From: an uncultured Solirubrobacterales bacterium | GTDB taxonomy: Bacteria > Actinomycetota > Thermoleophilia > Solirubrobacterales > 70-9 | DNA length: 53,646 nucleotides | NCBI GenBank assembly: GCA_903939845.1 | Contig: CAJAIJ010000036.1 | Location: 1 to 53,646 of the forward strand | Direction: 5' to 3' | Shown here: one piece after another, positions 13,136-18,630 of the stretch | How the letters are laid out: every line of letters starts with the position of its first letter | Position numbering within the stretch: the stretch's first letter is position 1 | Position numbers and translations under genes: made by a program | Notes under the pieces: generated by a model | What the model saw: only the letters and a program-made list of their open reading frames with translations | What the model was told of the DNA's origin: nothing | The model's database searches: none

Positions 13136-13542
13136 TGCGGTCCTCCGTCACGGACACGGAGTGCCTCGAGGAATCCTTCCAGCAGGTGTGCTGCCGCGAT
13201 CGAGTCTTCGTCGGCCTTGCTCCCTGTTGCCCTGCGCGTCTGTGAGGCCATCCGGGTCGTGAACCTCTCGTCGTAGAACTCGATCGGGAGGTCGCAGACG
13301 GCCCCGAGCTCGGCCGCAAACTGTCGCGTCACAGCGGCCTGATGGCCCTCCTCGCCGGAGAGCGAGCGAGGAAGGCCGATGACGAGCATCTCGGCCTCAC
13401 GCTCGGAGGCGATCCGTGCGACATCGGAAGGGTCGGGCGGCTCGGCTGCAGGAATCGGGGTGGCGAGGGTGCCGGTCGGATCAGAGATAGCGAGGCCGGC
13501 ACGCGCTTCGCCGTAGTCGATCGCGAGAACCCTCATCGTCAC
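13132..13542 (-). CDS. ruvX: RuvX/YqgF family Holliday-junction resolvase-like protein
   Basis: 136 residues with an RNase H-like fold: first acidic strand LAIDYGEARAGLAISD, GLPRSLSGEEG, FYDERFTT with Glu, and DEDSIAAAHLLEGFL with the last acidic residue. The family is implicated in pre-16S rRNA 5' maturation and possibly Holliday-junction resolution. The GTG start overlaps the alaS stop and its own stop overlaps mltG, so it is tightly coupled on both sides. Confidence 0.93.
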   Translation of the reverse strand: MTMRVLAIDYGEARAGLAISDPTGTLATPIPAAEPPDPSDVARIASEREAEMLVIGLPRSLSGEEGHQAAVTRQFAAELGAVCDLPIEFYDERFTTRMASQTRRATGSKADEDSIAAAHLLEGFLEALRVRDGGPQ

Positions 13543-16187
13543 CGGGATCCCAGGATCGAGCGGGCCTGCGCGAGGGCCTCGGAGATCCCTTCGGGCTTCC
13601 TGCCCCCGGCCTGAGCCGTCTCATCGCTTCCCCCACCTCCACCACCGATGAGTGGCGCGAGGTCCCCGATCAGGTCCTTTGCCGAGAGGCCACCGTAGCC
13701 GTCACCGGGGATCAGGACCACGAGACCGGTCTTGCCGCTCTCGGTATCGGCCCCGGCGAGGACGACTGCCGCTTCGGGATTCCGGGAGTGGACGTCCTTC
13801 GCCATCCCGAGGATCTGTTTGGTGTCGGGGGTCGGAACCTCTGAGATCACGGCAACGGAGGTCCCGAGGGGTTCGATCGCCTCGGCCAGCTCCGCCGCGA
13901 GAGAGGCCTGCCTGGCCTTCCACTCTTTCCTGGCCGCGGCTTCCACTTCGCTCAGCTTCTCACCGGCCCTCCTGGCGGCCGAGACCGGATCCCTCGGATC
14001 GCCGAGGATCTCGCCGACCTGCCTGAGTTCTCCTGCTCGCTCGCGATGCCAGTCGATCGCCTCCGGACCGGTAATGGCCTCGATCCGGCGAACGTTTGCA
14101 GCGCTCGAGCCTTCGGAGACGATCGCAAAGATCCCGACCTCGGCAGTGTTGGTCACATGGGTGCCGCCACACAGCTCCTTCGAGACGCCCTCCACCTCGA
14201 CGACCCGAACCCAGTCGCCATACTTCTCGCCGAAGAGCGCCATCGCCCCGAGCTTCTCGGCCTCATCCTTCTCCATGACCATCCACCGGACGGGCGCGGC
14301 GTCCTTGATCCACCCGTTGACCCTCTCCTCGATCCACTCGACCTCTTCGGGAGAGAGCGGCTCGGAGTGGTTGAAGTCGAACCGGAGCTTCTCGGGCGTC
14401 ACCGCCGAGCCGGCCTGATGGACATGGCTGCCCAGCCGTTCCCTGAGTGCCGCGTGGAGGAGGTGGGTCGCCGTGTGGTTGGCCATCGTTCGAAATCGGT
14501 CCCTGCGATCGACGACGGCCTCGACCGTTGCACCCTCGACCGGTATGCCGGACCCGTCCTGCGAGCCATTCGGCTCGACCGACACTTCGACGACCTGGTC
14601 GTCACCGATCCTGACGACGTCGGTGACCAGGGCAGACCCCCCGTCCCAGGCGATCGTGCCGGTATCTGCCACCTGTCCCCCGCCCTCGGCGTAGAAGGGG
14701 CTCCGGTCGAGCTTCAGCAAGGCCCTGCCGTCATCGGTCTCCTCGATCGCCTTCACTGCCGTGGAGGCAGAGAGAGCTTCATAGCCGACGAACTCGGCGG
14801 GCGCGGATCCTGCCGCAAAGGCCAGGATTTCCTCGTGCCTCTCCCCCCTGCTGCCCTTGGCGGCTCCCGAACGGGCCCGGCGCCTCTGGGCCTCCATCAA
14901 TTCCTCGAAGCCCTGGTCATCGACGGCCAGGCCCTTCTCGGCGATCATCTCCCGGGTCAGGTCATAGGGGAACCCGTATGTGTCGTGGAGAAGGAATGCA
15001 TCATCGGCGCTGATCCAGGAGTTCCCGTCGGCCAGCGCCCGCTCGACGACGTCGTCGAGCATCGCGGTGCCCCGGTCGAGTGTGCGGCCGAAGCTCTCGA
15101 CCTCGGAGGCGACCCAGCGATCGACCAGCTCGCGTTCGTTGACCACCAGCGGGTGGGCATCGCCCATCATCTCGATCGTCCGGTCGGTGAATGCCGTGAG
15201 CCAGGGGCCTTCGAGGCCGAGTACGCGACCCTGCTGGATCGCGCGTCGCATCACCCGGCGAAGCACATAACCACGCTCTTCGTTGGAGGGAACCACTCCG
15301 GCAGCGAGCAGGAAGGTCATGCCCCGGGAGTGATCGGCCACGATCCGCATCGCCCGGGTCACCTCGGGCGAGGACTCGTAGGACTTGTCGCTCATCTCTT
15401 CCGCCAGTTCGATCAGCGGCGAGAACAGATCGGTCTGAAATACCGATGGCACCCCCTGGAGAATCGCCGCCATTCGCTCCAGACCCATACCGGTATCGAT
15501 GTTCTTGGCCGGCAGCGGGGTCAGTGAGCCGTCTTCAGACAGGTCGTAAGTCATGAAGACGTGATTCCAGTACTCGAGGAAGCGATCGGAATCATCGCCC
15601 GGCCGGACTTCGTCCCCACCGAAATCCGGGCCCCGGTCCAGATACATCTCTGAACAGGGGCCGCATGGGCCGGTCGGACCGGCCTGCCAGAAGTTCTCCG
15701 ACCGCGGGAGCCTCACGATCCTCTCGTCGGGGACCCCTATCTCCTTCCAGATCGCGATCGACTCTTCGTCGGGTCCGAGGCCGAGCTCGTCATCGCCACC
15801 GAAGACGGTCACCCAGATCAGTTCGGGGTCGAGCCCGAGGCCTTCGACCGAAAGCTCCCAGCCGAACGGGATCGCGTCCTCCTTGAAGTAATCGCCGAAG
15901 CTGAAGTTCCCCAGCATTTCGAAGAAGGTGAGGTGACGCATGGTCTTGCCGACTTCCTCGATGTCCGGGGTGCGGAAGCAGGTCTGGGAGGAGGTGAGCC
16001 GTGACGAAGGCGGTGTCTCGCGGCCGAGGAAGTACGGCTTGAAGGGCTGCATGCCGGCAACGGTGAGCAGGGTCGAGGTGTCGTCCGGCGCAGGTATCAG
16101 GGAGGCCGAAGGCAACCTGCGGTGATCCCTCTCCTCGAAGAAGGAGAGGAAGGTCTCGCGAATCGTGGCTGAATCCATGGAGCGCAT
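13539..16187 (-). CDS. alaS: Alanyl-tRNA synthetase
   Basis: 882 residues, full length. The class II core (about 1-240) contains the motif around RHLTFFEMLGNFSFGDYFKE. It is followed by the tRNA-recognition domain, the editing domain with HTATHLLHAALRE and the second zinc-binding segment ELCGGTHV, and the C-terminal domain with the glycine-rich stretch IGGGGGGSDETAQAGG. It charges tRNA-Ala and deacylates Ser/Gly mischarges. Start ATG 16187 or the ATG three codons later. It lies 12 bases after the mnmA fusion and is coupled to ruvX. Confidence 0.97.
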   Translation of the reverse strand: MRSMDSATIRETFLSFFEERDHRRLPSASLIPAPDDTSTLLTVAGMQPFKPYFLGRETPPSSRLTSSQTCFRTPDIEEVGKTMRHLTFFEMLGNFSFGDYFKEDAIPFGWELSVEGLGLDPELIWVTVFGGDDELGLGPDEESIAIWKEIGVPDERIVRLPRSENFWQAGPTGPCGPCSEMYLDRGPDFGGDEVRPGDDSDRFLEYWNHVFMTYDLSEDGSLTPLPAKNIDTGMGLERMAAILQGVPSVFQTDLFSPLIELAEEMSDKSYESSPEVTRAMRIVADHSRGMTFLLAAGVVPSNEERGYVLRRVMRRAIQQGRVLGLEGPWLTAFTDRTIEMMGDAHPLVVNERELVDRWVASEVESFGRTLDRGTAMLDDVVERALADGNSWISADDAFLLHDTYGFPYDLTREMIAEKGLAVDDQGFEELMEAQRRRARSGAAKGSRGERHEEILAFAAGSAPAEFVGYEALSASTAVKAIEETDDGRALLKLDRSPFYAEGGGQVADTGTIAWDGGSALVTDVVRIGDDQVVEVSVEPNGSQDGSGIPVEGATVEAVVDRRDRFRTMANHTATHLLHAALRERLGSHVHQAGSAVTPEKLRFDFNHSEPLSPEEVEWIEERVNGWIKDAAPVRWMVMEKDEAEKLGAMALFGEKYGDWVRVVEVEGVSKELCGGTHVTNTAEVGIFAIVSEGSSAANVRRIEAITGPEAIDWHRERAGELRQVGEILGDPRDPVSAARRAGEKLSEVEAAARKEWKARQASLAAELAEAIEPLGTSVAVISEVPTPDTKQILGMAKDVHSRNPEAAVVLAGADTESGKTGLVVLIPGDGYGGLSAKDLIGDLAPLIGGGGGGSDETAQAGGRKPEGISEALAQARSILGSR

Positions 16188-16199
16188 CGGTGGCGGAGC

Positions 16200-17648
16200 C
16201 TATTCGATAGTGCCGTGGCCGACGACGGCCTTTCCCCGCATCAGGACGGCGGTCTGGCCGGGAGCCGCACCGGCGAACCCGTGGCCGAGCACGACATCGA
16301 CCCGATCGTGAATGCCGACCGGTGCATCGACCTTCGCCGGGACTGGATCGGAGCGGTATCGGAGCCTGATCCGATCGACCGTGGAGCCGTCCCTGTGGAG
16401 GGTGACCCTCGCAAGGCCGACCCGCTCCACCGTCAGCTCGTCGAGGTCACCGATCGTCACCGTGTTGGAGGCGGCGTCGATTCCGGTCACGTATCGAGGC
16501 TCTCCGGTTGCCACACCGAGGCCGCGTCGCTGCCCCACGGTGAACTGGTGGTGGCCCCGGTGCCGTCCAAGGACCTTCCCACCTGCATCGACCACATCGC
16601 CTTCCCTGTCGCCGATTCCGCCGTGCCGTGCAAGAAAGGCCTCCTTGCCCGTACCGGCAAGGAAGCAGAGGTCCTGGCTCTCCGGCTTTCGTGCGACCGA
16701 GAGACCATTCTCTTCCGCTATTTCGCGAACCCTGACCTTCGTCGTCCTCGCGAGTGGGAAATCGAGCCGCTCGAGGCGCTCGGGGGCGATCGCGGCGAGC
16801 ATGTAGCTCTGGTCCTTCTTCGGATCGGAAGCTTCGGCCACGAGAACTCCCTCTCCATCGTGGACCAGGTCGGCGTAGTGCCCGGTGACGAGTCTGTCGG
16901 CGCCGATCCGTTCCGCCAGATCGGACATGGCGTCGATCCGGACCGATCCGTTGCAGAGGATGCAGGGATTGGGTGTCTTGCCGGTCCGGTAGCCCTCGAC
17001 GAATCCGGCGACGACGCTCGAGCGGAACTGCTCCTCGAGGTCGAGGGTTATGTGGGCAAGGCCGAGCGAATGCGTCACTGCCCGCGCCGACAGGACGGCC
17101 TCGGGCGAACAGCAGGCCCTGGTCCCATCCGTCTCCGGGTCGGCCCAGAGCTTGACCGTGATCCCGACCGGTTCGAGTCCGGCATCGCGCTGCATGAGCG
17201 CTGCGACGGCGCTGTCGACTCCCCCGGAGACGGCGACGCAGACCCGATCGGGTGCCGCGGTTGCGATCGTCGCCCCCGACGAGGCCGCAACCGTGATCGC
17301 CCGGTGGAGGGCATCGACGGCCAGGACTGCCGCGTGGCGGCTGACCGCACTGAGTCCGCCCAGCTCGGCGTCGAGGTCGTCAGGGGTGATCCTGGCAGCG
17401 TCGAGGAGTCCCGAGCCGTCGACCATCCCGGCGAGGCATGCCGCAGAGGCACGTATCGCCGCGCAGCCCTCGGCCTCGGCCGTGACCCGCCGGATCTCTC
17501 CGGTCGAAGAGGTTTCGAGCGAAAGACGGACCAGATCCCCACAGGCAGCGCCCCCAGAGGCACCCGTGAAGGCGCCCTCGCCCGGATCGCCCCGATACGA
17601 GGGGTCGCGGAGGTAGTGCTCGATCTGGTTTTCGGCCCCTAGATCCAC
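16200..17648 (-). CDS. mnmA: IscU/SufU-like scaffold domain fused to tRNA 2-thiouridylase MnmA
   Basis: 482 residues. Residues about 6-122 resemble an Fe-S scaffold: ACGD (Cys36, Asp38), EGCAAIRAS (Cys62), and SRHAAVLAVDALHRAI, where His105 is kept but the third scaffold cysteine is Ala106. From about 134 it is MnmA: PP-loop SGGVDS (141-146), ACCS, catalytic NPCILCN (Cys229/232), GHYAD, DQSYML and the persulfide-site cysteine in DLCFLAG (Cys328). MnmA makes s2U34 in Lys/Glu/Gln tRNAs. The GTG start lies 6 bases after TACCCT, so the transcript is probably leaderless. Ordinary MnmA is about 360 residues, so the N-terminal domain is additional. It heads the mnmA-alaS-ruvX-mltG-aroE operon. Confidence 0.9.
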   Translation of the reverse strand: MDLGAENQIEHYLRDPSYRGDPGEGAFTGASGGAACGDLVRLSLETSSTGEIRRVTAEAEGCAAIRASAACLAGMVDGSGLLDAARITPDDLDAELGGLSAVSRHAAVLAVDALHRAITVAASSGATIATAAPDRVCVAVSGGVDSAVAALMQRDAGLEPVGITVKLWADPETDGTRACCSPEAVLSARAVTHSLGLAHITLDLEEQFRSSVVAGFVEGYRTGKTPNPCILCNGSVRIDAMSDLAERIGADRLVTGHYADLVHDGEGVLVAEASDPKKDQSYMLAAIAPERLERLDFPLARTTKVRVREIAEENGLSVARKPESQDLCFLAGTGKEAFLARHGGIGDREGDVVDAGGKVLGRHRGHHQFTVGQRRGLGVATGEPRYVTGIDAASNTVTIGDLDELTVERVGLARVTLHRDGSTVDRIRLRYRSDPVPAKVDAPVGIHDRVDVVLGHGFAGAAPGQTAVLMRGKAVVGHGTIE

Positions 17649-17685: not shown

Positions 17686-18630
17686 ATGACCTGGACCGCA
17701 AAGGACATACCGTCACAGCGAGGAAGGACTGCGGTCGTAACGGGCGCCAATGTCGGTCTGGGACTCGAGACCGCGACCGAACTGGCCCGAGCCGGAGCAA
17801 CGGTGGTTCTGGCCGCGAGGGACCCCGCCAGGGCCGAGTCGGCGATCGCATCGATCGGCTCTTCGATACCGGACGCAGACGTGCGTTTCGTCCCCCTCGA
17901 CCTGGCCAGTCTGGCTTCGGTCGCCGAATTCTCGGAAGCCGTCGCCACAACCTTCCCTGACGGCCTCGATCTGCTCATCAACAACGCCGGGGTGATGATG
18001 CCGCCCCGGAGGGAGACCGAAGATGGATTCGAGCTCCAGCTCGGGACCAATCACCTCGGCCACTTCGCCCTTACCGGCCGACTTCTCCCGATGATGGGCG
18101 ACCGCGATGGCTCCCGCGTCGTAACGGTGAGCAGCGGCATGGCGAGGATGGGCCAGATCGACTTCGACGACCTGCAGGGTCGGCAGAGCTACAGTCGCAC
18201 CGGTGCCTATGCCCAGTCGAAGCTGGCCAACCTCGTGTTCGCACTGGATCTCGATGACAGGCTCGAGAACTCCGGGTTGAAGACGAGAAGCATGGGAGCC
18301 CATCCCGGCTACGCTGCGACGAACCTCCAGGCGGCCGGGCCGAGGATCGGCGGTGGACTCGGAAGCACCCTTGCGGCGCCATTCATGGCACTCGGCCACA
18401 GACTCCTTGCCCAGAGCGCCGAGGCCGGTGCACTGCCGACGCTGAGGGCCGCAACCGAGCCCGGGCTTGCCGGCGGTACATACATCGGGCCCGATGGACC
18501 GGGTGAGATGCGTGGATCTCCCGTCCCGGTGAAACCGGTCGAAACTGCCTCGGACCCCGAGGTCGCAGAACGTCTCTGGGAGGCGTCTGTCGAGCTGTCC
18601 GGGGTGGACTACCCCTTCCTCACCGCCTGA
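17686..18630 (+). CDS. Short-chain dehydrogenase/reductase (retinol-dehydrogenase-like)
   Basis: 314 residues of a classical SDR. Cofactor loop TGANVGLG (about 19-26), AARD after the second strand (suggesting NADP preference), NNAGVM, catalytic Ser in VTVSSGMA, and YAQSK (Tyr/Lys), then HPGYAATNL. The similarity is to the RDH/WWOX-like group common in actinobacteria, acting on hydrophobic alcohols or ketones; the substrate is not predictable. Monocistronic and divergent from the mnmA fusion, followed by the 6S RNA candidate on the other strand. Confidence 0.92.
   Translation: MTWTAKDIPSQRGRTAVVTGANVGLGLETATELARAGATVVLAARDPARAESAIASIGSSIPDADVRFVPLDLASLASVAEFSEAVATTFPDGLDLLINNAGVMMPPRRETEDGFELQLGTNHLGHFALTGRLLPMMGDRDGSRVVTVSSGMARMGQIDFDDLQGRQSYSRTGAYAQSKLANLVFALDLDDRLENSGLKTRSMGAHPGYAATNLQAAGPRIGGGLGSTLAAPFMALGHRLLAQSAEAGALPTLRAATEPGLAGGTYIGPDGPGEMRGSPVPVKPVETASDPEVAERLWEASVELSGVDYPFLTA

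What the first reader, a model, noticed from the sequence alone, without database searches (positions are those of the whole stretch)
16200..17648. Fe-S scaffold-like domain fused to MnmA, with the third scaffold cysteine lost
One 482-residue frame joins an IscU/SufU-like domain to the tRNA 2-thiouridylase. The scaffold-like part keeps ACGD (Cys36, Asp38), the middle Cys62 and His105, but the last ligand cysteine is Ala106. MnmA itself has a complete active site (Cys229, Cys232, Cys328). Some MnmA enzymes have been reported to bind an Fe-S cluster and all need sulfur delivered to them. A built-in scaffold relic could hold a cluster or dock a cysteine desulfurase, replacing a separate carrier.
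Basis: partly seen in the sequence, partly recalled or inferred. Interest (0 to 1): 0.75.

Follow-up and report, generated by a model that had tools for sequence, protein, structure and literature searches.

The report
IscU-like domain fused to MnmA
A bacterial enzyme that puts sulfur on tRNA carries, built into the same protein, a modified copy of an iron-sulfur assembly protein; it has lost the cysteine that normally receives sulfur but keeps four metal-binding residues in all the close relatives examined, which suggests a built-in sulfur-delivery part.

Summary
One minus-strand frame (16200-17648, GTG start, 482 aa) joins an IscU/NifU-like domain (Pfam NifU_N, E 7e-17) to a CxxC-C type MnmA. 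It is a conserved architecture: single-frame fusions occur in 9 of 11 sampled families of the window's class (Thermoleophilia, by named relatives) and in four further families of the phylum. "Lost third cysteine" is part of a stricter rule: of 132 fused homologues with both positions readable, none keeps both His105 and Cys106; 40 of 41 free-standing relatives do. In the window's group Cys36, Asp38, Cys62 and His105 are, with one Ala, the only fully invariant columns of 122 (112 rows, 104 distinct). These four match the metal ligands of free human ISCU2; the lost one matches its sulfur acceptor. So the domain is not a dead relic here, and probably not a full Fe-S scaffold. Best reading (inferred, untested): an MnmA-dedicated IscU paralogue that docks the desulfurase and relays sulfur in cis, perhaps through Cys36 as in SufU. 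Against it: ISCU2 lacking its acceptor showed no persulfide on another cysteine, and related families erode the site (f9, parts of f8) or nearly the whole domain (f7). No paper on the fusion was found in the library searched.

The parts
16200..17648 (-). fused gene: IscU/NifU-like domain + tRNA 2-thiouridylase MnmA, 482 aa, GTG start, stop included
17292..17624 (-). IscU/NifU-like domain (NifU_N match, residues 9-119)
17541..17543 (-). Cys36 codon, first ligand; proposed sulfur-relay cysteine
17535..17537 (-). Asp38 codon, ligand
17463..17465 (-). Cys62 codon, ligand
17334..17336 (-). His105 codon, ligand
17331..17333 (-). Ala106 codon; the place of the IscU sulfur-acceptor cysteine
16206..17246 (-). 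MnmA part (residues 135-481) with CC (179-180), Cys229, Cys232, Cys328
13539..16187 (-). alaS, alanine--tRNA ligase, 12 bases downstream of mnmA on the same strand; a neighbour, probably co-transcribed
   Evidence: TIGR00344, 817.6 bits, cut-off 457

Best explanation
The N-terminal domain descends from an IscU that worked beside MnmA and was then dedicated to it. Shown: an operon desulfurase-IscU-MnmA of separate genes exists in f6, and fused versions exist with the desulfurase still next door (f22, f10, f11) or without it (f1-f5, f8, f9). Shown: the dedicated domain has lost one of the adjacent pair His105/Cys106 in every fused homologue examined; the window's lineage lost Cys106 and holds Cys36, Asp38, Cys62, His105 without exception. 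Inferred: these four bind one metal ion (Zn or Fe). Inferred: the domain docks a cysteine desulfurase (SufS in this genome), the metal swaps a ligand as in SufU, Cys36 takes the persulfide, and the sulfur passes within the same protein to the MnmA active site (Cys229/232/328, which by analogy with Thermus MnmA may hold a [4Fe-4S] cluster). It thus works like a tethered SufU/TusE, not like a full Fe-S assembly scaffold.
For: Invariance of C36, D38, C62, H105 with A/G/V at 106 in 112 rows (104 distinct), against a mean conservation of 0.58 in the domain. His105 and Cys106 never together: 0 of 132 fused, against both present in 30 of 30 free IscU/NifU's loci and 10 of 11 others. Cys36 kept in 129 of 131 readable fused sequences, including 12 of 12 in f9, where the other ligands are gone in all but one row (L083 has an aligned His). 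Desulfurase gene directly upstream: f22 19 of 19 fused, f10 4 of 5 (the fifth is cut by the contig end), f11 2 of 2. In 21 f1-f4 genomes no IscS-type desulfurase by score (best TIGR02006 bits 89-128, like the known SufS at 119), TusA in 1 of 21, DsrC/TusE over cut-off in 2 of 21. Own genome: SufS at 550 bits beside SufU. Papers (passages only): Fe in free ISCU2 is bound by Cys69, Asp71, Cys95, His137 and Cys138 is the direct sulfur acceptor (PMC11021402); SufU Cys40 of M. tuberculosis, Cys41 of B. subtilis, takes the persulfide after a Zn ligand swap with a SufS His (PMC10216065). The residue matching across families is my inference from motif order.
Against: In ISCU2 the C138S variant showed no persulfide on any other cysteine, and Cys69 (the Cys36 equivalent) was not essential for persulfidation (PMC11021402). 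For E. faecalis SufU another cysteine was proposed as acceptor (passage in PMC10216065). The f7 family keeps only an about 80-aa remnant without any of the ligands (24 of 24 loci), and f15, f72 and three of nine f8 sequences have damaged sites, so the chemistry is dispensable in some lineages. The window's congener G059 has a DsrC-family gene. No metal, sulfur transfer or docking has been measured.
Confidence: 0.45

Rival explanations
1. The domain is mainly a docking or structural module: it positions the desulfurase (or packs on MnmA or tRNA), and its cysteines are dispensable. The metal site is kept in f1-f5 and f22 for folding.
For: Site eroded in f9 (only Cys36 left apart from one row's aligned His) while the fold signal stays (NifU_N 68.8 bits for L073); f7 keeps a ligand-free remnant (hhalign to the fused domain: probability 96.4, E 1e-9); f15 and f72 lost Cys36 in one sequence each. 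Confident model of the whole fusion, pTM 0.93.
Against: In the window's group four ligands are invariant in 104 distinct sequences while the domain as a whole averages 0.58, and position 106 is never Cys; a purely structural role would not need this pattern. Cys36 outlives the other ligands in f9.
Confidence: 0.3
2. The domain is an in-cis iron or Fe-S donor that builds or repairs the [4Fe-4S] cluster of the CxxC-C type MnmA.
For: The MnmA part has CC, CxxC and C in all aligned class members (one row cut); this type carries [4Fe-4S] in Thermus (review passages, PMC8584467). The four kept residues are the Fe ligands of free ISCU2 (PMC11021402).
Against: None of 132 fused domains keeps the His-Cys pair that 40 of 41 free relatives have. 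CxxC MnmA also occurs with the ligand-free f7 remnant, so the MnmA type does not track the site. Whether MnmA in general needs a cluster is disputed for E. coli (passages of PMC11784392).
Confidence: 0.2
3. Annotation or assembly accident: two separate genes read as one, or translation starting at MnmA.
For: In one Rubrobacteraceae-like genome (L277) iscU and mnmA are separate, overlapping genes, and in L174 the two parts lie in different frames.
Against: Single-frame fusion in 132 genomes of 13 families, invariant N-domain residues, confident joint model.
Confidence: 0.03

Closest known systems
IscU / NifU N-domain (Pfam PF01592; e.g. A. fulgidus 4eb5_C, human ISCU)
   Same: Fold and sequence: NifU_N E 7e-17; Foldseek to 4eb5_C rmsd 1.2 over 112 columns; C-D-C-H kept.
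   Different: Cys106 (acceptor) lost; scores below the NCBIfam cut-offs for IscU and NifU (46.5 against 192.4; 51.6 against 187.9); fused to MnmA.
SufU zinc sulfurtransferase
   Same: Four-ligand site with the CGD cysteine that takes sulfur in SufU; the own genome's SufS is of the kind found beside SufU.
   Different: Weaker sequence match than IscU/NifU (24.7 bits, cut-off 92.5); fourth ligand is His, not Cys; the genome has a separate SufU.
CxxC-C type MnmA (Thermus-like, reviewed in PMC8584467)
   Same: Complete MnmA with CC, Cys229, Cys232, Cys328.
   Different: Carries the N-domain.
iscS-iscU-trmU genes of Clostridium perfringens (cpe1785-1783; passages of PMC2940859)
   Same: Same three functions side by side, as in f6 of this class.
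   Different: Separate genes there; fused iscU-mnmA here, and no desulfurase next to the window's gene.
E. coli Tus relay (TusABCDE) to MnmA
   Same: Would serve the same purpose, carrying sulfur to MnmA.
   Different: Unrelated proteins; TusA found in 1 of 21 and DsrC/TusE over cut-off in 2 of 21 f1-f4 genomes.

Membership tests
MnmA tRNA 2-thiouridylase | full-length match above the curated score | tested here: met
   NF001138 328.2 bits, cut-off 284
MnmA, CxxC-C (cluster) type | CC, CxxC and C motifs | tested here: met
   C179-C180, C229, C232, C328
MnmA, CxxC-C (cluster) type | [4Fe-4S] cluster | not testable with these tools
   needs anaerobic biochemistry
IscU/NifU scaffold | NifU_N domain and fold | tested here: met
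IscU/NifU scaffold | all ligands C, D, C, H, C | tested here: not met
   position 106 is Ala in the window; A/G/V in 112 of 112 rows
IscU/NifU scaffold | curated equivalog score | tested here: not met
   46.5 bits (cut-off 192.4) and 51.6 (187.9)
IscU/NifU scaffold | assembles a [2Fe-2S] cluster | not testable with these tools
SufU | curated equivalog score | tested here: not met
   24.7 bits, cut-off 92.5
SufU | CGD cysteine and four-ligand metal site | tested here: inconclusive
   C36, D38, C62 present; fourth candidate ligand is His105, not Cys; metal not measured
SufU | accepts persulfide from SufS | not testable with these tools
   inferred only

The most novel reading that the evidence does not exclude
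An IscU paralogue dedicated to tRNA thiolation and fused to MnmA, in which selection removed the Fe-S assembly chemistry (never His105 and Cys106 together) but kept a four-ligand metal site, turning a cluster scaffold into a tethered, metal-gated sulfur relay that lets MnmA draw on SufS without Tus proteins or a dedicated IscS.
Probability: 0.4. Interest if true: 0.75.

Novelty: new variant of a known kind. Interest (0 to 1): 0.6.

Why it matters
How MnmA gets its sulfur in bacteria without the Tus relay is open, and so is how far its Fe-S cluster matters. A natural fusion that ties an IscU fold to MnmA, with a series of lineages at different stages of losing its ligands, makes both questions testable in one protein and shows how a cluster scaffold can be turned to another use.

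Tried and rejected
Rejected: 'relic' for the window's own group (four ligands invariant). Rejected: 'Cys36 invariant everywhere' (lost in f72 L263 and f15 L269, and in the f7 remnant). Rejected: 'MnmA type explains the fusion' (CxxC MnmA also occurs with the f7 remnant and in the f6 separate genes). Rejected: 'loss of Cys106 follows physical fusion' (L277 has a separate iscU already without Cys106). Rejected: 'site state follows the desulfurase type' (CDCH with SufS only in f1-f4 and with an adjacent NifS/IscS-type enzyme in f22). The MnmA tree (80 rows, midpoint root) puts the f6 separate genes inside fused lineages, so one simple fusion event is not shown; the N-domain tree (69 rows, few columns) puts 43 of 44 fused domains, the split L277 and one odd free domain (L268) on one side of a 97/93 branch. 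Interdomain distances could not be measured: no coordinates are handed out. Alignment A5 was made for a second structure job that I did not run. The paper library gave no account of this fusion in the searches; the key paper of Shigi 2020 is not held and may mention it. I recall, without a call, a UniProt name 'Bifunctional protein NifU/MnmA', so databases may already list the architecture.

Full report
What is there. The finding lies on the minus strand: 16200-17648, GTG start, 482 aa. Residues 9-119 match Pfam NifU_N (E 7.2e-17 for the 137-aa N-part) and residues 135-481 match MnmA (NF001138, 328.2 bits, cut-off 284). The N-part matches the NCBIfam models NifU (51.6 bits), IscU (46.5) and SufU (24.7) but stays under each curated cut-off. 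In the PDB its best match by sequence is yeast Isu1 (E 4.3e-11), in which the aligned pair His-Cys is His-Ala here. The AlphaFold2 model of the whole protein, built on 51 homologues, has mean pLDDT 95.8 and pTM 0.93. Foldseek matches it to MnmA (2hma, 2deu) and to IscU (4eb5_C, rmsd 1.2 over 112 columns), with B. subtilis SufU lower.

Surroundings. alaS follows 12 bases downstream on the same strand. Upstream there is a divergent SDR gene starting at 17686. No desulfurase gene is next to the window's gene. The own genome (1.9 Mb, 92% complete) has a SufS (550 bits, cut-off 475) with a SufU-like protein (88.0 bits, just below the curated cut-off of 92.5) directly after it. No other desulfurase was found: TIGR02006 hits only SufS, and the other five PF00266 matches are weak, the best 43.6 bits and not identified. 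Eight per cent of the genome may be missing.

Spread. 199 genomes of the class were searched with the N-part plus the start of MnmA. I fetched 110 of the listed loci: one (L180) had no MnmA on the piece, one (L174) has the two parts in different frames, and 108 are fused in one frame: f1 13, f2 27, f3 6, f4 3, f5 31, f8 9, f9 12, f10 5, f11 2. The remaining genomes were not fetched for this, had no match, or had only free-standing matches in the capped list. That the class is Thermoleophilia rests on these names. In the phylum search (296 genomes) I picked places with long open frames and fetched 36 loci; 24 are fused: f22 19, f54 2, f15 2, f72 1. f22 is probably Rubrobacteraceae; I recall the contig length of G237 as that of Rubrobacter xylanophilus, no call says so.

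The ligand rule. On the alignments (counted), 132 unnamed fused sequences have both positions 105 and 106 readable. None has His and Cys together. f1-f5 and f22 have C, D, C, H and then A, G or V; f10, f11, f54 and six of nine f8 have C, D, C, another residue, then C; the remaining three f8 are CGCSS, CSCYA and CSCYT; f9 keeps Cys36 in 12 of 12, with the other ligands gone except that L083 has an aligned His; f15 and f72 vary and two of these three have lost Cys36. Cys36 is present in 129 of 131 readable rows (L163 is cut by the contig end). Among free-standing relatives, 30 of 30's loci (the best NifU_N matches, so not a random sample) and 10 of 11 have the full C, D, C, H, C; the exception, L268 (CDCSC), has no MnmA nearby. 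The own SufU, which has no such His, is not counted here. In f1-f5 plus the named loci (112 rows, 104 distinct; L163, L173 and L174 dropped) five of 122 N-domain columns are fully invariant: C36, D38, C62, H105 and A113; position 106 is A in 80, G in 31, V in 1. Mean conservation is 0.58 in the N-domain and 0.66 in MnmA.

Stages. f6 has separate genes desulfurase, IscU (full ligands) and MnmA in 8 of 8 fetched loci. In f22 the desulfurase is directly upstream of the fused gene in 19 of 19, in f10 in 4 of 5 (the fifth is cut), in f11 in 2 of 2. In f1-f5, f8 and f9 no desulfurase was found in the fetched flanks of 102 loci, some of which are short. One f22 genome, L277, has a separate iscU (CDCHA, already without Cys106) whose end overlaps the likely mnmA start by 8 bases, behind a NifS/IscS-type desulfurase. 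So the loss goes with dedication to MnmA rather than with the physical fusion. f7 keeps an extension of about 80 aa in 24 loci without the ligands; it has no Pfam match (one tested) but matches the fused domain by profile (probability 96.4, E 1e-9 over 62 columns). The MnmA tree groups the families well but nests f6 among fused lineages, so the number of fusions or splits is open.

Sulfur sources. In 21 f1-f4 genomes the best IscS-model score is 89-128 bits, at the level of the known SufS (119); in f6 (3 of 3), f8 (4 of 4), f9 (4 of 4), f10 (3 of 3), f11 (2 of 2), f22 (3 of 3), f5 (4 of 5) and f7 (1 of 5) it is 170 or more. Calling the former 'no IscS-type enzyme' is an inference from score. 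TusA is in 1 of these 21 and DsrC/TusE over the cut-off in 2 of 21, one of them the window's congener G059. f7, which has lost the site, mostly lacks an IscS-type enzyme as well, which counts against the domain being necessary for use of SufS.

How it most likely works. From passages of PMC11021402: free ISCU2 holds Fe by Cys69, Asp71, Cys95 and His137; Cys138 is the direct sulfur acceptor; the C138S variant showed no persulfide on other cysteines. By motif order the window keeps the four and lacks the fifth. From passages of PMC10216065: SufU takes sulfur on the CGD-motif cysteine after a SufS histidine replaces it on zinc; a different acceptor was proposed for E. faecalis. The own SufS has the motif IHPHD; that its second His equals this SufS histidine is my recollection, not aligned here. 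I therefore favour a SufU-like relay through Cys36 to MnmA in cis (0.45), above pure docking or structure (0.3) and cluster delivery (0.2). MnmA of the CxxC-C type has a [4Fe-4S] cluster in Thermus (passages of PMC8584467); for E. coli MnmA the cluster is disputed (passages of PMC11784392).

Novelty. Both parts are known families, and separate iscS-iscU-trmU genes are known in Clostridium perfringens (passages of PMC2940859). I found no paper on the fusion or on the His105/Cys106 rule in the searches and 77 of an open-licence library. I rate it a new variant of a known kind.

Noticed in passing
L189-L214 (f7 loci), upstream of MnmA: MnmA of a large family of the class carries an about 80-aa ligand-free remnant of the same domain (24 of 24 loci with an uncut N-end).
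   Followed up: partly
L277:1499-4113: A Rubrobacteraceae-like genome has separate iscS-type, iscU (without Cys106) and mnmA genes, the last two overlapping by 8 bases.
   Followed up: partly
L174 (G170, f5): IscU-like and MnmA parts lie in different frames; separate genes or a sequencing error.
   Followed up: no
L269 (G420, f15): Fused MnmA whose CC motif reads SA while CxxC-C is kept; N-domain site NNCHA.
   Followed up: no
L268 (G283, f45): An IscU-like domain with CDCSC and no MnmA hit on the 5.6 kb piece; its N-domain groups with the fused ones on a long branch.
   Followed up: no
L109, L114, L119, L124: Loci titled Terriglobia, Bifidobacterium breve (two) and Chlamydiae hold near-identical-in-kind solirubrobacterial sequence; probably misassigned or mixed bins.
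   Followed up: no
G059:C7:43609-43905 and G194:C40:10573-10872: Two f1 genomes, one of the window's genus, carry a DsrC/TusE-family gene that the other sampled f1-f4 genomes lack above the cut-off.
   Followed up: no
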